Positions 2,265 through 16,904 of a stretch of DNA of 17,036 nucleotides are shown piece by piece (position 1 is the first letter of the stretch; every line of letters begins with the position of its first letter). A program made the translations under genes and the position numbers. The notes beneath the pieces are model-generated. The model had not been told where the DNA came from and ran no database searches. It saw only the letters and a program-made list of their open reading frames with translations. The DNA is from Desulfotignum sp. (lineage in GTDB: Bacteria; Desulfobacterota; Desulfobacteria; Desulfobacterales; Desulfobacteraceae): positions 1 to 17,036 of the forward strand of contig JAABSS010000469.1 in NCBI GenBank assembly GCA_011390235.1, in the 5' to 3' direction.

Positions 2265-2864
2265 GTCACTCCTTATGCCATCACAGTTGAAACCATGCCG
2301 GAAATATCAGACCGGTCAAACGCCCGAATCCACCTTTGGTCTGCCGCCAGCCGGTTCCTGCGACTGTATGACAACCCTGCCGGATAATAATCAACCATAG
2401 GATTATCTTTGAGAGTTGTCCGGGGATTTATCTAAAACTTCCCGCACCTTATGCTTCAGTCTCGTTTACAAGCTAACGGTTGAGCTGCGGGGCCGGGGAA
2501 CATATACCACAGCCGATCTTTAATGCTTCAACTATTTCCACCAACCAAGGCTTTGGGAAAAAGCGAGAGGTTTTTCAATATTTTGTGATGCATACCATAT
2601 CAACACGACAAAAAGCAAGCAGGTGTTTCCAGTCGTTTCTAAATGATACTATCTGGCCTAAATGAGAGCCGGTTCCGATGTGATATTCATTATTGGGCAG
2701 TCACATTGACAAAAATTGACAGCAACCCATTATAGATTTATGGGGTTTTACCGGAACCCCCTGGTTTTAAGCAGGCATTGCTTTTTGATTTTGCCAGCAT
2801 GAAATTTGCGTGACATATTTTGTGGCAACATAAGACCCATAAAGAAATAGGGAGGACTTATTTC
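2265..2864. other. Gene-free 600-bp region between MFS gene and flagellin remnant
   Basis: No convincing coding sequence was found. A 61-codon plus-strand frame at 2480-2665 lacks a ribosome binding site and resembles no family. The segment should hold the promoter of the MFS gene on the minus strand and of the flagellin on the plus strand. A GC-rich piece near 2470-2505 (CTAACGGTTGAGCTGCGG) resembles half of a palindromic intergenic or attC-type site, but its partner arm is not present. Confidence 0.5.
2706..2735 (+). promoter_or_regulatory. Candidate sigma-70-type promoter of the flagellin remnant
   Basis: TTGACA at 2706-2711 is followed after 18 nt by TTATAG at 2730-2735, about 130 nt before the flagellin ATG. 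A second TTGACA at 2716 is too close to the same -10 to be used with it. Flagellin genes often use sigma-28 or sigma-54, and no good match to either was seen. A loose GG-N10-GC pattern at 2763-2776 lacks the rest of a sigma-54 site. Confidence 0.3.
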
Positions 2865-3273
2865 ATGAAAATAAATTCAAACACATCCAGCATGTTTGCC
2901 ACCAGGCAATTAGGCGATGCATACAAATCTTTTTCAGATTCGATCAATCGGCTGTCAACCGGGAAAAGAATAAACAAGGCGGCTGATGATGCATCCGGAA
3001 TGACCATTGCTGACAGATTGAACAGTCAGCTGCCGGCATGGGCCAGGCGATAAAAAATGCAAATGATGCCATTTTGTGGCCCAAATTGCAGATGGCGCCC
3101 TTGAAGAAGCTGCAGGTCTTATCAATACCATAAAAACCAAATCCATCCAGGCATCAAGTGACAGCCACTCACATGAAAGCAGGGCAGCCATCCAGTCGGA
3201 TATCAACCATGCGCTGAAATCACTGGACCGGATTGCCCAGACCACATCATTCAACGGCCAGAAACCTCTTTCA
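2865..3273 (+). pseudogene. Flagellin, N-terminal part, two frameshifts and 3' truncation
   Basis: The first 55 residues are a clear flagellin D0/D1 N-terminus: MKINSNTSSMFATRQL, then SINRLSTGKRINKAADDASG and MTIADRLNSQ. Translation in this frame stops at 3053. The homology continues in the next frame (AAGMGQAIKNANDAI, from about 3031), then shifts again near 3073 to VAQIADGALEEAAGLINTIK and on to RIAQTTSFNGQKPLS, ending at 3273. So about 135 residues of the N-terminal half remain, with two single-base-type frameshifts. The variable centre and the C-terminal D1/D0 half needed for filament assembly are absent. GGAGG lies about 9 nt before the ATG. The identification is secure. The copy cannot make a functional flagellin, and the cell may have another. 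Confidence 0.9.
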
Positions 3274-5914: not shown

Positions 5915-6449
5915 TGTTTTTCTCCAATGGGCGGTTGTAAGTCATCCGGCTGGGTAATCTCCATGATGACCCCGACCGCCCGGGTCACCTTTCCGTTTTC
6001 CATCACTGGTTCGCCCAGTGAACGGACCTGCCGGTGCCCGACATCACAATGGCGATGGATCGCTCCTGCTGGTCCTGGGCCAGGGAGCGGAAGAAAAAAT
6101 CGATGGGGAGGCGCTGACCACGGGGTGTACTGACTTCCAGCAGCTGCAGTGTGCCGTTGAGAAAAGCCATATCCCGGTTGGGCGGTATGATATAGGCGCA
6201 GTTGGGTGCGACCGTCATCCCGTCTTCGACTTCAAAGACCTGCATACGGGTGTATCGCCGAATAAGCTCGGTAAGAATGCTCTTGTGATCTGGAGCCAGG
6301 TGCTGCACCAGAACAAAGGCCATTCCCGTGTCCACATCCATCGGCATGCCGGAAAAAAAGGCCTCGAATGCTGCCAGCCCGCCGGCTGAAGCACCGATGC
6401 CCACGATGGGAAATGCCTCGGCAGTCCGGTCTTTATCTCTTTTTTTCAT
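5911..6449 (-). pseudogene. CheB-type methylesterase domain joined to a PAS tail by internal deletion
   Basis: From ATG at 6449 the protein matches the catalytic domain of CheB methylesterase as found in CheB-CheR-PAS fusions: GIGASAGG with nucleophile Ser21, then VLVQHLAPDHKS with His50, and a run up to IVMSGTG. The family normally continues with the catalytic Asp (GTGxDG), but this frame instead ends in unrelated residues at 6003. In the next frame, from about 6030 to the stop at 5911, a PAS/PAC C-terminus is present (RQVRSLGEPVMENG, then RAVGVIMEITQPDD). The parent was therefore probably a long CheB-CheR-PAS protein from which the rest of CheB, all of CheR and most of the PAS part were removed, with a frame change at the join. 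The TGA overlaps the next gene's ATG. The remnant is unlikely to be active. Confidence 0.8.
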
Positions 6450-9057: not shown

Positions 9058-9700
9058 TCATTCATTCAGGTGACACGCCCGTCCTTTGAGGTTGAAAAAG
9101 AACTTGAGCCCCTTTTGAACAGTGGGAGAAAAAATTTTGGGGGACAGATAGGTGCCGGCCACCCGCTTGTTGATTTCACCAATGGTGGGATAGGGATGGA
9201 TGGCAGCAGCAATGGTGGACAATTTCACATTGCCGTTGAATGCCGCCACCCATTCACTGATCAGGTTTCCGGCGCCAGGTCCCAGGATCTGCACCCCGAT
9301 GGGTTTTTCCTTTTCATCCAGCAGCAGTTTGATTTTACCATCTGTATGCTTTTCCGCCTGGGCCCGGTCATTGTCTTTAAAGGATTCGGTAATCACCCGG
9401 CATTGTATCCCGGCTTTTTCTGCCCCGGTTTCATTCATGCCGATACTGGCCAGTTCCGGGTCGGTATAGGTGACCCATGGCAGCCAGGTGTAATTGACCT
9501 TCCTGGGAAGGCGGAACACGGCATTGCTGATCACAATTCCCCCTTCATATCCTGCGGCATGGGTGAACTGGTATCCGCCGTTCACATCCCCTGCTGCATA
9601 GATGTGTTTATGGCTGGTGCGCAGCCGGCTGTCCACCTGAATGCCGGACCGCTCCACTGCGATGCCAATGCCGGACACGGTCCGGGAAAAAACAGCAGTG
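9058..9700 (-). pseudogene. Pyridine nucleotide-disulfide oxidoreductase (mercuric-reductase-like), 5' truncated
   Basis: The C-terminal half of a class I flavoprotein disulfide reductase. It begins near SGIQVDSRLRTSHKHIYAAGD, the second FAD-contact motif, runs through VNGGYQFTHAAGYEGGI and the dimerisation domain (TWLPWVTYTDPELASIGMNE, then VQILGPGAGNLISEW) to AIHPYPTIGEINKRVAG, and stops at 9058. This His-Pro-Tyr-Pro motif supplies the general-base histidine at the partner subunit's active site. The N-terminal FAD Rossmann domain with GxGxxG, the redox-active CxxxxC and the NAD(P) domain are all absent. Upstream of about 9700 all frames contain unrelated or degraded sequence. The open frame continues to 9774, but that part does not look homologous. 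The family is annotated variously as mercuric reductase or dihydrolipoamide dehydrogenase, and the remnant does not decide between them. Confidence 0.82.
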
Positions 9701-9830
9701 CGTTGAATGCCTGATTCCGTGAAGAAACAAACACTTTTTTTGCGCCAGAAAGGTTGCGGCTTGGGCGGGAACAATCAGGTTGCATCCGACTATCGCGGCT
9801 AACCCGGGCCTTTGGCCTAAAAATTTACAC

Positions 9831-9884: not shown

Positions 9885-10133
9885 ATGCTTGCAAAAATAC
9901 AAAAATGGGGAAACAGCCAGGGGCTTCGGCTTGCAAAGAATCTGCTTGCAGATGCGCAGCTAAATGTTGGCGATGAGGTTGATATCAAGGTGAAAGACGG
10001 CATTATGCTTGTTGTACCTGCCAAAAGGATTCGTGGCCAGCACAATCTTAAGGAACTTGTATCGCGTATTCCTGAAAATTATCAAGCCGGTGAAATTGAC
10101 TGGGGACAACCAGTTGGCAAGGAGGTCTGGTAA
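9885..10133 (+). CDS. MazE-type antitoxin (SpoVT/AbrB fold)
   Basis: An 82-residue antitoxin. The N-terminal part (MLAKIQKWGNSQGLRLAKNL, then LNVGDEVDIKVKDGIMLVVP) is a canonical AbrB/MazE swapped-hairpin DNA-binding domain. The acidic C-terminal tail (residues about 55-82, ending IDWGQPVGKEVW) would wrap around and block the toxin. AAGGAGG lies 7 nt before the ATG. The toxin gene starts immediately after its TAA, the usual antitoxin-first arrangement. The operon is probably repressed by the antitoxin or the complex at the promoter-overlapping repeat. Confidence 0.92.
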   Translation: MLAKIQKWGNSQGLRLAKNLLADAQLNVGDEVDIKVKDGIMLVVPAKRIRGQHNLKELVSRIPENYQAGEIDWGQPVGKEVW

Positions 10134-10469
10134 ATGGCGATGTATATCCCCAAGCAGGGGGATATCATTGCAATTACATTTGACCCGCAATCAGGTCATG
10201 AGCAAAAAGGCAGGCGCCCTGCTTTTGTTGTAAGCAAGGACTTATTCAACCGAAGTACAGGTTTGGCTATCGTTTGTCCAATTACAAACACTGATCGCGG
10301 GTTCCCCTTTCACATACCTATTCCGGATGACAGTAAGTTGACAGGCTTCATTATGGTCGAGCAGGTCAAATCTGTCGACTTTCGGTCCCGACGCGCTAAG
10401 CGTATAGAACGAAGTAAAGATCGCCTGCTGTCAGAAGTGCTTTCCATTTTAGATGCATGTATCTATTGA
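10134..10469 (+). CDS. MazF/PemK-type mRNA endoribonuclease toxin
   Basis: A 111-residue toxin of the MazF/PemK/ChpB family, which cleaves RNA at short specific sequences and halts growth. The signature opening is present: YIPKQGDIIAITFDPQSGHE, then QKGRRPAFVVSK. So is the middle block GLAIVCPITNTDRGFPFHIP with its TNT, followed by GFIMVEQVKSVDFRSRRAKR, which carries the conserved region used in RNA binding and catalysis. The length is normal and nothing is missing. ATG follows the antitoxin TAA with no gap, and GGAGG within the end of the antitoxin gene provides the binding site. The cleavage sequence cannot be read from the gene. Confidence 0.93.
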   Translation: MAMYIPKQGDIIAITFDPQSGHEQKGRRPAFVVSKDLFNRSTGLAIVCPITNTDRGFPFHIPIPDDSKLTGFIMVEQVKSVDFRSRRAKRIERSKDRLLSEVLSILDACIY

Positions 10470-13419: not shown

Positions 13420-13668
13420 ATGCATATTTCATTGACACCTGAGCTTGAAAACAAAGTTAAGCAAAAAGTAGCATCAGGTTTTTATAACAATGCAAGTGAA
13501 GTTATTCGGGATGCTTTGCGGTTCTGGGAAAAAAACGAAGAACTGGTTCAGCATATGAAACTCGAATTGTTAAAAGAGCGCCTGTCCATTGGTGCGGATC
13601 AAGCCAAACAGGGGAAATTTGTGGCGCAATCCGTAAGCGAAATTATTGCTGAGGTCAGGAATGCCTGA
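13420..13668 (+). CDS. ParD-type antitoxin (ribbon-helix-helix)
   Basis: An 82-residue antitoxin. The N-terminal MHISLTPELENKVKQKVASG, then FYNNASEVIRDALRFWEK, is a ribbon-helix-helix DNA-binding domain of the ParD/CC2985 kind: a beta-strand ISLT followed by two helices with the typical YxNASEVIRDALR. The C-terminal helix (residues about 40-82) would bind and neutralise the toxin. AAGGAGG lies 7 nt before the ATG. The toxin gene overlaps its end by 8 nt, so the two are translationally coupled. Confidence 0.92.
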   Translation: MHISLTPELENKVKQKVASGFYNNASEVIRDALRFWEKNEELVQHMKLELLKERLSIGADQAKQGKFVAQSVSEIIAEVRNA

Positions 13669-13954
13669 ATACCGCCTTACCCCTTCAGCAAAATCAGATT
13701 TAATTGAAATTTGGAATTATACTGTTGAGACATGGGGTGAGCAACAAGCTGAAAAATATCTTCAAGATATCGAGGATACGCTTAATGAACTCGCTGCCAA
13801 TCCGGGGCTTGGAAGACGGCGACCTGAAATCTCTCCAGGATATTATTCCTTTCCAGCACGGAAACACATCATTTTCTATCTTAACTCAGGTCGTCACATT
13901 GATATCATTGGCATATTACATGGAAAAATGGATATTGATAAAAATTTAATCTAA
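13661..13954 (+). CDS. ParE/RelE-superfamily toxin
   Basis: A 97-residue toxin of the ParE branch of the RelE/ParE superfamily; characterised ParE proteins poison DNA gyrase. It shows the family order: YRLTPSAKSDLIEIWNYTVE at the start, QAEKYLQDIEDTLNELAANP in the helical hairpin, then the arginine-rich LGRRRPEISPGYYSFPARKH and the C-terminal strands IIFYLNSGRHIDIIGILHGK. The ATG at 13661 is chosen because it begins the homology and follows GAGG. An in-frame TTG further upstream lies within the antitoxin gene and is unlikely. The overlap with the antitoxin is 8 nt. Confidence 0.92.
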   Translation: MPEYRLTPSAKSDLIEIWNYTVETWGEQQAEKYLQDIEDTLNELAANPGLGRRRPEISPGYYSFPARKHIIFYLNSGRHIDIIGILHGKMDIDKNLI

Positions 13955-14151: not shown

Positions 14152-14439
14152 TCAGCAGCAGCCGTCCCCGCAGGAGGCGTTTTCCTTGCCTTTTATCCAG
14201 ACCTGGATAATATAGGTGGCTCACCCTACCCCGGGACTGACAGATATAGCATCCACCGGGCAGTTGCTGACACAGGCCCCGCACTCCATGCAGGCATTGA
14301 AATCAACGATCTCGGCTTTATTTTCATTCATCTCAAACACGGCATGGGGGCAGACCTCGGTGCACAAGCTGCAGCCGATACATTTTTGGCCATCCAGCAC
14401 CAGGGTGGCCACATCCTCCAGATATCTGAAATCTTTCAT
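14152..14439 (-). CDS. hgcB: HgcB mercury-methylation ferredoxin with probable selenocysteine at residue 73
   Basis: HgcB is the [4Fe-4S] ferredoxin that with HgcA makes methylmercury; it is thought to reduce the corrinoid and bind Hg. The first 72 codons give MKDFRYLEDVATLVLDGQKC, two CxxCxxCxxxC cluster motifs (Cys20-30 and Cys50-60, with CMECGACVSNC) and PVDAISVSPGVG. Codon 73 is TGA (14221-14223). The frame then continues ATYIIQVWIKGKENASCGDG and ends in Cys94-Cys95 before TGA at 14152. The total of 95 residues is the length of the characterised HgcB of strain ND132, and residue 73 is where HgcB has its conserved lone Cys (GVGC). A SECIS-like hairpin follows at once. I read TGA as selenocysteine. 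The alternative is a nonsense mutation or sequencing error that would leave a 72-residue product. AAGGAG lies 7 nt before the ATG; hgcA ends 34 nt upstream. Confidence 0.9.
14185..14223 (-). promoter_or_regulatory. Sec codon and SECIS-like hairpin in hgcB
   Basis: In the mRNA the UGA (14221-14223) is followed, after 12 nt, by UUAUCCA-GGUC-UGGAUAA (14193-14210): a perfect 7-bp stem with a GGUC tetraloop. The tip CAGGUCUG is the same as in the E. coli fdhF SECIS as I recall it, where the G and U of the loop contact SelB. The first loop G stands 17 nt after the UGA, against 18 in fdhF, within the usual bacterial window. GCC just after the UGA can pair with GGC at 14185-14187 to extend the stem with an internal loop. 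The coding sense is kept throughout, as bacterial SECIS elements require. Confidence 0.82.
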
Positions 14440-14473: not shown

Positions 14474-15682
14474 TCAGAATGCGCTGTAGATCCACAATCC
14501 CGCAGACACCAAAACCCCGGCCAGCTGCACGGGAAGGTATTGCTTCATCTCTTTTTCCACCCCGGAAGGGGAGGTGAACGGGGTGGCCCCGGTGAAATTC
14601 ATGGCCAGATGGGAACTGACCATGACGCTGAAGATAAACAGGGCTGCTGCACCGGCAATGCTGCCGGCACCTGCGAAAACAACCGGCAGCAGTAACAGGG
14701 CGCACACACTACCTAAAAAAATGCCTTTGAGCGCAAATTTTCTTGACGGAATAAACGGCAGCAGCACCGGGGTCAGAACCGCACCGGAAATCAGTCCGGT
14801 TAGCAGGGCGGCCAGGGACACCAGGCCCCTTTCCCATGCCTCATGAAAAGAAAATATTCCCGGACCGATGCCTGAAAGTACAAACAGCACCAGGGCTGTG
14901 ACACCTGCCATTTTCAACGCCCCGTGCAGTTCCACCGGGGTCAGCACAAACCGCTCGAACAGGGGGAACGTGACCTGGCGCATGGATTTTTCCGCTTTTC
15001 TGCCGGTGTTCAAAAACAGCGGGATATCACAGGCCCGCACCGGGCCGTACACTACTCTGAACCCGGACTGTGTTTTAACCTGCCTGGCTGATACCCCTGT
15101 GGCCCCCAGCTGGGGCACGATGACCCGTTTATGGGTCACCACCTTTTCAAGGGAGGCTGCCTGGATTCTGTTTACCAGTTCCGGGGTGGAAAAGGTTTTT
15201 TTGCCTGCTGCGCACCAGACATTCACCCCGCGGGTGTCCAGCACCAGAATCCAGGCGCTGACATCACCAAGCGCAGATCTCAGATGATCAAAGGTCAGCT
15301 TGAAATTGGCGGTCACCAGCACCTCTGATGATGCATCCGGTGATCCGATGCCGTAAAGTCCGGGGCTCACCATGTACCGGTGGCGCCGGATGCCGCACCG
15401 GACCGCAATGGTGGACACCCGGTCCCATCTGTCCAATTCCCGCCTGATAACGGGCACCGGGCCGGCACCGGTATCAATGAAATGGTCAACATAGGGGCAC
15501 AAAGCATATCCGGGTTTTTCATATACGTCCAGGGGGCGGGTAACTTCCGACCCGCATGCCGGACCGGGCATGTGCATGGCTGGCATGATCTGTACATTGC
15601 CGGTTGACAGGCTGAAACCTTTTTTTTGAAAAGGATCGCTGTCCTGGTTTTTTTGCTTCTTGTTCATTGGGGGTATTTCCAT
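14474..15682 (-). CDS. hgcA: HgcA, corrinoid-dependent mercury methyltransferase
   Basis: HgcA transfers a methyl group from its corrinoid to Hg(II). The corrinoid domain holds GPVPVIRRELDRWDRVSTIA, then SPGLYGIG, VLVTANFKLTFDHLRSALGD and ILVLDTRGVNVWCAAGKKTF. NVWCAAGK (154-161) is the cap-helix motif diagnostic of HgcA, with Cys157 as the lower axial Co ligand. VPQLGATGVSARQVK and GFRVVYGPVRACDIP also match. Residues about 258-400 form five membrane spans, as in known HgcA. The distance from the cap Cys to the C-terminus (245) equals that in ND132 HgcA as I recall it, but the N-terminus is about 64 residues longer. The ATG at 15682 has a weak GGAAA before it, and the ATG at 15667 is an alternative. 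It lies 31 nt after arsR and 34 nt before hgcB. Confidence 0.96.
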   Translation of the reverse strand: MEIPPMNKKQKNQDSDPFQKKGFSLSTGNVQIMPAMHMPGPACGSEVTRPLDVYEKPGYALCPYVDHFIDTGAGPVPVIRRELDRWDRVSTIAVRCGIRRHRYMVSPGLYGIGSPDASSEVLVTANFKLTFDHLRSALGDVSAWILVLDTRGVNVWCAAGKKTFSTPELVNRIQAASLEKVVTHKRVIVPQLGATGVSARQVKTQSGFRVVYGPVRACDIPLFLNTGRKAEKSMRQVTFPLFERFVLTPVELHGALKMAGVTALVLFVLSGIGPGIFSFHEAWERGLVSLAALLTGLISGAVLTPVLLPFIPSRKFALKGIFLGSVCALLLLPVVFAGAGSIAGAAALFIFSVMVSSHLAMNFTGATPFTSPSGVEKEMKQYLPVQLAGVLVSAGLWIYSAF

Positions 15683-15713: not shown

Positions 15714-15980
15714 CTATAAGGTTTTCACATATTGCTTGAACTGGTCCAATACGGTTTTATCCACGCAAAAATAGGTTTTTGGGCCTTCCACCTCTCCGCA
15801 GACAATGCCAGATTCCTTGAGTATCTTCAAATGCTGGCTGATGGTGGACTGGGAATAGGGAAAAATACCCACGATCTCGCCGCAGATGCAGGTATCGATC
15901 GCAATCAGGTGCTGGACAATCTTGATCCGGGTAGGATGGCCCAGGGCTTTGAAAATTTTTGCAGTCTGTTCCAGATCCAT
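15714..15980 (-). CDS. ArsR/SmtB-family metalloregulator of the hgc operon
   Basis: An 88-residue winged-helix repressor. LEQTAKIFKALGHPTRIKIV, then QHLI, forms the first helices, and YSQSTISQHLKILKESGIV the recognition helix. The motif DTCICGEI (Cys31, Cys33) lies where the classic ArsR As/Sb site ELCVCDL is found, so a thiophilic metal or metalloid is a plausible inducer. Cys61 and Cys72 could add ligands. The frame is open to 16079, but the ATG at 15980 starts the homology and has AAGGA 9 nt before it. The protein begins the arsR-hgcA-hgcB operon and has a strong inverted repeat just upstream. ArsR-type regulators next to hgcAB have been reported in other sulfate reducers. Which ligand it senses (As, Hg, Cd or another) cannot be read from the sequence. 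Confidence 0.9.
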   Translation of the reverse strand: MDLEQTAKIFKALGHPTRIKIVQHLIAIDTCICGEIVGIFPYSQSTISQHLKILKESGIVCGEVEGPKTYFCVDKTVLDQFKQYVKTL

Positions 15981-15996: not shown

Positions 15997-16043
15997 ATCG
16001 TTAATCGACTTTTAACGATGACATGTCTTTGTTTTCCTGTCAA
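15997..16043 (-). promoter_or_regulatory. Operator-like inverted repeat and -35 of the arsR-hgcAB operon
   Basis: ATCGTTAA (15997-16004) and TTAACGAT (16012-16019) form a perfect 8-bp inverted repeat with 7 nt between, ending 17 nt before the arsR start codon. On the minus strand TTGACA lies at 16038-16043. A -10 at normal spacing would fall at 16015-16020 (CATCGT, poor) inside the repeat, so repressor binding would block RNA polymerase. The placement fits autoregulation by the ArsR protein. The inverted repeat is certain; its role is inferred. Confidence 0.6.
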
Positions 16044-16144
16044 CCCCAAAAAGCCAAACGGGATATTTGCCATAAACATGTCAGATTTCCGATCGCTTTG
16101 TGCAGGATTTTATTTATCAGGTGGAGTTATTCAGAAAAAAATTG

Positions 16145-16150
16145 TATACT
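16145..16150 (+). promoter_or_regulatory. Possible -10 box of the Fic gene
   Basis: TATACT at 16145-16150 matches the -10 consensus at five of six positions and lies 64 nt before the Fic start codon. The -35 position 17 nt upstream reads TGGAGT, which is weak. Confidence 0.3.
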
Positions 16151-16214
16151 TCATTGCTTCCGCAGCAGTGCGGCCGTTCGAAACCTATACTCCATAATTA
16201 AGTCGGTGTGTGAA

Positions 16215-16904
16215 ATGAATGAAACGCAATGGGGCATTAAACCAAATAAAGCAAAAGCAATAATGCTTGCGAAGCGCCAACTATCTGAGTTTGTATGTGA
16301 CGCAGTTAATTTGGAAGGGATTAATTTAACTTTGCCGGAAATCCAAACATTACTTGGCGGGATTACAGTTGGAGGACATAAATTATCTGACCAGCAGATA
16401 GCATTGAACCAAGCCGATACATGGCGCACGTTATTTGGGTTAATTGATAAAAATCAGTTTGAAATCACCTATGAAAAAGTCTGTGCATTACATCGCATAG
16501 CGGGTAAGGACGAGGCATTGGATTGGGGAAAGTTTAGATCTGGTGGGGTTACTATAGCAGGGACAGGCTATATGCCGCCACAGGCTGATGCGTTACCGGA
16601 GTTGTTTGAAAAAATGGTTGACGACTCATATAGTATACCCGATATTTACGATCGTGCTATCCATTTTTTTCTTACAATGGCAAGATGCCAATTTTTTTAT
16701 GATGTCAATAAGCGTATGGGGCGTTTTATCATGAATGGACTTTTGTTGAGTTGCGGATACCCTGCAATTAATCTTCCTGCGAAGAGACAATTGGAGTTTA
16801 ATCAATTGATGCTCGATTTTTATAAAACTGGTAATCAAAAACCGATGAATACCTTTCTACTCTCCTGCTTAGATGAAAAAGTAATACAAATCATGAAAGA
16901 ATAG
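16215..16904 (+). CDS. Fic-domain protein with non-canonical active site
   Basis: A 229-residue Fic/DOC-superfamily protein; active members transfer AMP or other nucleotide groups onto target proteins. An N-terminal helix bears NLEGINLTLPEIQTLL (residues 32-47), resembling the inhibitory-helix region of self-inhibited Fic enzymes, with Glu34. The Fic core is at 159-170, QFFYDVNKRMGR, against the usual HPFxDGNxRxxR: the catalytic His is Gln159 and the DGN glycine is Val164, while Asp163, Asn165, Arg167, Gly169 and Arg170 are kept. This points to a subfamily with altered chemistry or no AMPylation. The ATG at 16215 begins the plausible protein; the frame is open to 16023 but that part looks random. 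The ribosome binding site is weak. The gene is AT-richer than the hgc operon, with which it is divergent, and was probably acquired separately. Confidence 0.82.
   Translation: MNETQWGIKPNKAKAIMLAKRQLSEFVCDAVNLEGINLTLPEIQTLLGGITVGGHKLSDQQIALNQADTWRTLFGLIDKNQFEITYEKVCALHRIAGKDEALDWGKFRSGGVTIAGTGYMPPQADALPELFEKMVDDSYSIPDIYDRAIHFFLTMARCQFFYDVNKRMGRFIMNGLLLSCGYPAINLPAKRQLEFNQLMLDFYKTGNQKPMNTFLLSCLDEKVIQIMKE

What the first reader, a model, noticed from the sequence alone, without database searches (positions are those of the whole stretch)
14152..14439. HgcB with an in-frame TGA at the conserved Cys73: a probable selenocysteine mercury-methylation ferredoxin
The hgcB frame is broken by TGA exactly where HgcB has its strictly conserved lone cysteine (GVG-C), and continues for 22 family-typical codons to Cys94-Cys95, for a total of 95 residues as in characterised HgcB. 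A SECIS-like hairpin with a GGUC loop lies at the right distance. Mutational work on HgcB showed, as I recall, that Cys73 is critical for methylation. A selenolate there would change Hg affinity and redox behaviour, since Hg-Se bonds are stronger than Hg-S. I do not know of a described selenoprotein HgcB. Automated annotation would call a 72-residue truncated protein and miss it.
Basis: partly seen in the sequence, partly recalled or inferred. Interest (0 to 1): 0.96.

Follow-up and report, generated by a model that had tools for sequence, protein, structure and literature searches.

The report
Selenium-type mercury-methylation ferredoxin HgcB
This bacterial mercury-methylation gene has a TGA codon exactly where most relatives encode an essential cysteine, followed by an RNA hairpin sequence kept in all 64 other TGA-type copies compared, so it is likely read through as selenocysteine, a form of this protein that others had already predicted.

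Summary
Confirmed, but not new in kind. hgcB (14439-14152, minus) has an in-frame TGA at codon 73 (14223-14221), then 22 family-typical codons ending Cys94-Cys95, behind arsR and a complete hgcA. It is no sequencing error or nonsense mutation: of 86 genomes held for one GTDB family, 55 carry HgcB over the curated cut-off, and all 55 have TGA at codon 73. Across 65 TGA genes, codons after the TGA drift synonymously except those forming a 7-bp hairpin (UUAUCCA-GGUN-UGGAUAA): ATT77, ATC78 and ATA82 are 65 of 65, CAG79 64 of 65; 39 other near-constant codons changed 4-26 times on the tree. Only 2 of 86 Cys-type genes form this stem. tRNA-Sec was found in 39 of 43 TGA-type genomes searched; SelB in 20 of 23, SelA and SelD each in 10 of 11. 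The window's own genome is not held. 'I do not know of a described selenoprotein HgcB' does not hold: a 2026 review lists HgcB (NF040864, motif GVGU), crediting Haft & Gwadz 2023, which I could not read. Possibly new: family-wide fixation, the frozen SECIS codons, and selenium in HgcA or HgcB but never both in the loci read. Selenium insertion remains unproven by experiment.

The parts
14152..14439 (-). hgcB, 95 codons with in-frame TGA at codon 73; dicluster ferredoxin of mercury methylation
   Evidence: NF040864 124.8 bits with TGA read through, cut-off 99; translation
14221..14223 (-). TGA codon 73, predicted selenocysteine, at the column of the conserved Cys73
   Evidence: TGA at this codon in 65 genes
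14189..14216 (-). predicted SECIS hairpin: upper stem UUAUCCA/UGGAUAA (14210-14204 with 14199-14193), loop GGUC (14203-14200), short lower stem CCU/AGG (14216-14214 with 14191-14189)
   Evidence: fold, coordinates; upper stem complete in 65 of 65 TGA genes and 2 of 86 Cys genes
14152..14154 (-). terminal TGA stop codon of hgcB, right after Cys94-Cys95
   Evidence: the terminal stop is TGA in 45 of 65 TGA-type genes
14474..15682 (-). hgcA, corrinoid protein of mercury methylation, complete, 34 nt upstream of hgcB
   Evidence: NF040863 416.5 bits, cut-off 275
15212..15214 (-). cap-helix Cys codon of HgcA (NVWCAAGK), still Cys
   Evidence: Cys in 64 of 64 TGA-type loci in which this part of HgcA could be read
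15554..15556 (-). Cys of the HgcA N-terminal motif (GPACGSE), at the place where other lineages have CCG or the Sec form CUG
   Evidence: homology of the place judged by eye from the spacing to the conserved PGY block
15714..15980 (-). arsR-family regulator directly upstream of hgcA
   Evidence: NF033788 68.4 bits, cut-off 55; PF01022; by a crude motif scan ArsR-like upstream in 14 of 23 TGA-type and 1 of 42 Cys-type loci with enough flank

Best explanation
hgcB in this window has an in-frame TGA at codon 73, exactly at the conserved cysteine of the family, and is likely translated in full as a 95-residue selenoprotein in which a predicted SECIS hairpin just after the TGA directs selenocysteine insertion. 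Shown by sequence: the TGA, the conserved translated tail, the frozen hairpin codons, and the Sec machinery in relatives. Inferred: SelB, charged with Sec-tRNA, binds the loop GGUC hairpin and recodes UGA73, while the second UGA at codon 96, with no hairpin at the right distance, ends the protein. Inferred from the published HgcAB model (PMC7305189), in which the C-terminal cysteine pair brings Hg(II) to the corrinoid and carries CH3Hg+ to Cys73: here a selenolate at position 73 would take that role, binding or releasing Hg species with different strength and speed than a thiolate. That last step is untested.
For: Same codon: 23 of 80 named loci, 55 of 55 HgcB-positive genomes among 86 of one GTDB family (codon checked), and 7 of 7 further loci fetched because their row showed a TGA, from 6 genomes outside that family. 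Translated tail: codons 83, 84, 86 and 88 took 13-25 synonymous changes while the residue stayed the same in 61 or 62 of 62 genes. RNA constraint: codons 77, 78, 79 and 82 took 0, 0, 1 and 0 changes, 39 other near-constant codons 4-26; stem complete in 65 of 65 against 9.8 expected from synonymous draws. Protein bent to the RNA: residue 80 is V in 57 and G in 1 of 58 TGA genes, keeping G in the loop, but T, S, G, E, V and others in 56 Cys genes. Machinery: tRNA-Sec over cut-off in 20 of 23 and 19 of 20 genomes, SelB 20 of 23, SelA 10 of 11, SelD 10 of 11. Function of the position: Cys73 to Ala abolished methylation (passage of PMC7305189). Prior prediction of the same form: PMC13188914.
Against: The window's own genome is not held, so its Sec machinery was not seen. 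The single-sequence fold is not striking (25 of 200 shuffles as stable for 50 nt; for the window 6% of synonymous variants fold as well). Because the stem never varies there is no covariation. Four of 43 TGA-type genomes lack a tRNA-Sec over cut-off (G002, G003, G019, G081) and three lack a full-score SelB (G002, G005, G010); all are draft genomes, G002 also lacks SelA, and G081 SelD. tRNA-Sec at 70 bits or more also occurs in 16 of 31 Cys-type genomes, so machinery does not imply the Sec form. One homologue, P0002 (86% identical, JGI), has Leu at this column. No Se insertion has been measured here, and the Hg hand-off step is a model.
Confidence: 0.92

Rival explanations
1. The TGA is a real stop: the organism makes a 72-residue HgcB without Cys73 and the C-terminal cysteines, or the gene is decaying.
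For: A mechanical reading ends there, and databases hold 72-80-residue forms.
Against: The 22 codons after the TGA keep their amino acids while changing synonymously in 62 genes; 60 of 65 TGA genes still end in Cys-Cys; the hairpin codons are frozen. Cys73 and the C-terminal pair are needed for methylation in a characterised relative.
Confidence: 0.03
2. UGA73 is read through, but by a near-cognate or suppressor tRNA, giving Cys, Trp or a mixture, not Sec.
For: Sequence alone shows recoding, not the inserted residue. The terminal stop of the same gene is also UGA, so reading must be site-specific.
Against: A stem with G in the first two loop places, 17 nt after the UGA, frozen in 65 genes, is what SelB-dependent recoding needs (SECIS rules recalled); tRNA-Sec in 39 of 43 such genomes; the column is otherwise Cys.
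Confidence: 0.04
3. Sequencing or assembly error turned TGC or TGT into TGA.
For: Other genes of this window look broken or partial (flagellin 2820-3050, CheB 6006-6449, Pyr_redox 9061-9774).
Against: The same TGA occurs in 64 other genes, among them loci on contigs of 4.96 and 6.04 Mb (L129, L130) and the named strain Desulfocicer vacuolatum DSM 3385 (L036), always with the hairpin.
Confidence: 0.01

Closest known systems
Selenoprotein form of HgcB, NCBIfam NF040864, motif GVGU (Haft & Gwadz 2023, J Bacteriol 205:e00259-22, as listed in Table 1 of PMC13188914)
   Same: Same family, same position (U directly after GVG), next to hgcA.
   Different: No difference seen. The original paper is not held, so whether it reports the family-wide spread or the frozen hairpin is unknown to me.
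Cys-type HgcB, as in the strain ND132 studied in PMC7305189
   Same: Two 4Fe-4S motifs, length about 95, GVG before position 73, helix YIIQ-W-I-KG, C-terminal Cys-Cys.
   Different: Cys73 instead of Sec73; no complete stem in 84 of 86 Cys-type genes; residue 80 free.
Selenoprotein form of HgcA, NCBIfam NF040863, motif CU (PMC13188914, Table 1)
   Same: The other subunit of the same complex, also predicted to carry Sec.
   Different: Here HgcA has Cys at the N-terminal motif and in the cap helix; CUG-type HgcA was seen only beside Cys-type HgcB (15 of 78 usable Cys loci, 0 of 62 usable TGA loci).
Bacterial SECIS elements such as that of E. coli fdhF (recalled, not compared here)
   Same: Short stem, G-rich apical loop, within the coding sequence just after the UGA.
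   Different: Sequence of its own; Rfam gives no match at this place.

Membership tests
HgcB, mercury-methylation ferredoxin (NF040864) | Profile score over the curated cut-off of 99 bits | tested here: met
   124.8 bits read through, 104.6 bits for the 72-residue piece
HgcB, mercury-methylation ferredoxin (NF040864) | Two CxxCxxCxxxCP motifs | tested here: met
   CIGCSLCTEVCP and CMECGACVSNCP in the translation
HgcB, mercury-methylation ferredoxin (NF040864) | Lone conserved Cys after GVG and C-terminal cysteines | tested here: inconclusive
   C-terminal Cys94-Cys95 present; the lone Cys is a TGA codon, which meets the feature only if read as Sec
HgcB, mercury-methylation ferredoxin (NF040864) | Next to hgcA with its cap-helix Cys | tested here: met
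   hgcA 34 nt upstream, 416.5 bits; NVWCAAGK
HgcB, mercury-methylation ferredoxin (NF040864) | Mercury-methylation activity | not testable with these tools
   no experiment
Bacterial selenoprotein | In-frame UGA aligned with a conserved Cys of homologues | tested here: met
   80-locus comparison and alignment
Bacterial selenoprotein | Conserved translated sequence after the UGA | tested here: met
   synonymous changes without residue changes at codons 83, 84, 86, 88
Bacterial selenoprotein | SECIS hairpin just downstream of the UGA | tested here: met
   stem in 65 of 65, frozen codons; a dedicated SECIS program was not available
Bacterial selenoprotein | Sec machinery in the same genome | tested here: inconclusive
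   host genome not held; relatives: tRNA-Sec 39 of 43, SelB 20 of 23, SelA 10 of 11, SelD 10 of 11
Bacterial selenoprotein | Selenium shown in the protein | not testable with these tools
   no experiment

The most novel reading that the evidence does not exclude
Mercury-methylating complexes use one selenol on their mercury relay, placed either in the HgcA N-terminal tail (CUG) or at HgcB position 73, never in both; in the HgcB-Sec lineage the selenol has taken over the work of the HgcA vicinal cysteines, whose CCG motif is mostly gone, and its SECIS now dictates the protein sequence of the HgcB helix. In the loci read, CUG-HgcA is 15 of 78 beside Cys-HgcB and 0 of 62 beside Sec-HgcB, and CCG or CUG is 64 of 78 against 11 of 62.
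Probability: 0.3. Interest if true: 0.72.

Novelty: new member of a known kind. Interest (0 to 1): 0.45.

Why it matters
HgcAB makes the neurotoxin methylmercury in sediments and waters. If every HgcB of a common family of sulfate reducers depends on selenium, then selenium supply could limit their methylation, protein databases hold only a 72-80-residue truncated form of their HgcB, and pipelines that discard or cut stop-containing hgcB would miscount them. The frozen hairpin gives a simple DNA signature (ATTATCCARGKNTGGATAAAR after GVG-TGA) by which to recognise the Sec form. It also makes the question of what Cys73 does chemically open to a direct test, since nature has run the Cys-to-Sec exchange.

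Tried and rejected
Rfam: no match in the window over gathering scores, and only meaningless weak matches around the TGA. Single-sequence folding: weak support only. Second origin of the TGA form: on the free quick tree of HgcA, L165 (genome G237) fell among Cys-type rows (SH-aLRT 94 with L133) and its hgcB looked mosaic (best DNA match of codons 1-72 is Cys-type, 70%; of codons 73-89 Sec-type, 94% to L036). I took this at first for a transfer of the 3' end. The one-clade test, run while rechecking, found a better tree (log-likelihood 12 higher) with all 63 Sec rows together, p-AU 0.63, so I dropped the claim of two origins; a single origin is the simpler reading. Sec in HgcA of the window: rejected, both relevant HgcA codons are TGC. 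One TGA-type locus, L166, was flagged by my script as CUG-HgcA; the match lies about 50 residues before the conserved block and before a Met, unlike the 15 others, and was judged spurious. Rows dropped before counts: L058 (anchor misread by my pattern; it is a Cys type) and L146 (no pattern match) were left out of the 65 against 86 comparison; the 86 Cys genes include three genomes counted twice (L024/L141, L031/L167, L039/L143, identical rows); 2 TGA-type and 5 Cys-type loci with hgcA too short or at a contig edge, and 1 and 3 with no hgcA found, were left out of the HgcA motif counts. The order-level table was cut by the tool, so TGA forms there are a lower bound. Structure prediction was not run: the HgcAB model in print already places position 73.

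Full report
WHAT IS THERE. On the minus strand the window carries arsR (15980-15714), hgcA (15682-14474) and hgcB (14439-14152), with 34 nt between hgcA and hgcB and the sequence AAAAAAGGAGAATAAAATG at the start of hgcB. HgcA scores 416.5 bits against NF040863 (cut-off 275) and keeps the cap-helix Cys (NVWCAAGK). The hgcB frame is interrupted by TGA at codon 73 (14223-14221) and goes on for 22 codons to Cys94-Cys95 and a terminal TGA. Read through, it scores 124.8 bits against NF040864 (cut-off 99); the 72-residue piece scores 104.6. By HgcA protein the nearest relatives are MAGs named Desulfotignum (89% identity over the aligned columns to L002). No genome is held for the window.

NOT AN ERROR. 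Of the 80 best HgcB loci kept from the genome collection (524 candidates were confirmed), 23 have TGA at codon 73, among them Desulfocicer vacuolatum DSM 3385 (L036). The tool searched the 86 genomes it holds for the GTDB family of that strain (the family is unnamed in the output; presumably Desulfobacteraceae): 55 have a match over the HgcB cut-off and all 55 contain a TGA. I read all 55 at the codon: 50 as L081-L130 and 5 as L009, L011, L013, L018 and L025; all have TGA at codon 73. L129 and L130 lie on contigs of 4.96 and 6.04 Mb. In 389 genomes of the order (a sample; 164 over cut-off, table cut) I fetched 7 further loci from 6 genomes whose row showed a TGA and that lie outside the family list; all 7 have it at codon 73. 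G016 and G017 (L016, L017) also lie outside the family list. In all: 65 TGA genes (window, 55, 2, 7).

THE TAIL IS TRANSLATED AND THE HAIRPIN IS SELECTED. On the HgcA tree of the main clade (62 TGA genes) codons 83, 84, 86 and 88 changed synonymously 14, 18, 13 and 25 times while the residue is the same in 61 or 62 of 62 genes. Codons 77 (ATT), 78 (ATC), 79 (CAG) and 82 (ATA) changed 0, 0, 1 and 0 times; the 39 other near-constant codons of the gene changed 4-26 times. In all 65 genes the only exception is CAA79 in L123. These are the codons of a 7-bp stem UUAUCCA/UGGAUAA around the loop GGUN. The stem is complete in 65 of 65 TGA genes (9.8 expected from synonymous draws) and in 2 of 86 Cys genes (2.1 expected). 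Residue 80, whose codon supplies the second G of the loop, is V in 57 and G in 1 of 58 TGA genes, but T 16, S 11, G 11, E 6, V 4 and others in 56 Cys genes, so the RNA element seems to dictate the protein there. There is no covariation, because the stem does not vary. As a lone fold the window's hairpin is only modest, and 6% of synonymous variants fold as well as the window's own.

SEC MACHINERY. tRNA-Sec (RF01852) is over cut-off in 20 of 23 and 19 of 20 TGA-type genomes, at 73-77 bits; missing in G002, G003, G019 and G081. SelB is over cut-off in 20 of 23 (G002 and G005 hold partial matches, G010 none of note), SelA in 10 of 11 (not G002) and SelD in 10 of 11 (not G081). The controls show that low tRNA-Sec scores mean little: all 14 control genomes have some match and 5 are over the cut-off. 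At 70 bits or more, 16 of 31 Cys-type genomes also have tRNA-Sec (21 of 31 over the cut-off), so the machinery is necessary, not sufficient.

HOW IT LIKELY WORKS. Inferred: SelB recodes UGA73 at the hairpin; the second UGA, at codon 96, has no such hairpin and ends the chain. Passages of PMC7305189 report that Cys73 to Ala abolished methylation in vivo and propose that the C-terminal cysteines hand CH3Hg+ to Cys73; PMC11588087 (passages) names C73, C94 and C95 as crucial. A selenolate at 73 would take that place. Its effect on rate or release is unknown.

WHAT IS KNOWN. PMC13188914 (passages only) lists in its Table 1 'Mercury methylation ferredoxin HgcB, NF040864, GVGU, 1, WP_250697400.1', crediting Haft & Gwadz 2023, and HgcA NF040863 with motif CU. 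PMC11588087 cites the same work. That paper is not held. Searches of the held library for HgcB with selenocysteine, selenoprotein, UGA codon, stop codon, and mercury methylation with selenoprotein and Haft found no other paper on the Sec form in what I read; listings and passages only. So this is a new member of a described, experimentally unproven kind.

WHAT MAY BE NEW (with the caveat that the source paper was not read). (a) In the family searched, every HgcB found is of the Sec type (55 of 55). (b) The SECIS is so strict that it freezes four codons and fixes residue 80. (c) CUG-type HgcA, the other predicted selenoprotein of the complex, occurs in 15 of 78 usable Cys-HgcB loci and in 0 of 62 usable Sec-HgcB loci, after one spurious flag (L166) was set aside; the N-terminal CCG or CUG motif is in 64 of 78 against 11 of 62. 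The Sec-HgcB genes may be one clade, so these counts are not independent and the contrast may be mere ancestry. (d) Origin: the free quick tree needs two changes of state, but the tree with all Sec rows together fits better (p-AU 0.63); one origin is the simpler reading.

VERDICT.

Noticed in passing
P0002 (JGI protein, 95 aa, 86% identical): Has Leu at column 73, neither Cys nor Sec; one base change from TGA would give a Leu codon. Contig not fetched, so an error is possible.
   Followed up: no
L061 1502-1504: HgcB with TGA at Cys23 of the first 4Fe-4S motif and Cys at 73; single MAG, probably an error, not tested.
   Followed up: partly
L033, L043, L044, L049, L051, L052, L055, L060, L064, L071, L073, L076, L145, L155, L158: HgcA with in-frame TGA in an N-terminal C-TGA-G motif (the known Sec form of HgcA), all beside Cys-type HgcB.
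   Followed up: partly
L160 and L161 (genome G327): One genome carries two hgcAB pairs, both with TGA at codon 73 of hgcB.
   Followed up: no
L165 (genome G237): TGA-type hgcB with a 5' part nearest to Cys-type genes and a 3' part 94% identical to L036 over 51 nt; the one-clade test does not reject a common origin.
   Followed up: partly
window 13420-13954 (+): ParD/ParE-type toxin-antitoxin pair just downstream of hgcB, on the other strand.
   Followed up: no
window 9885-10469 (+): PemK/MazF-like toxin gene (PF02452 at 10134-10466) with a small gene before it that looks like its antitoxin (the antitoxin by eye).
   Followed up: no
window 16023-16904 (+): Fic/DOC-family protein divergent from arsR-hgcA-hgcB.
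   Followed up: no
window 9061-9774, 6006-6449 and 2820-3050: Partial genes: pyridine nucleotide-disulphide oxidoreductase matching only its C-terminal part, CheB matching 122 of 174 profile positions, flagellin N-terminus of 77 aa; decay or assembly errors.
   Followed up: no
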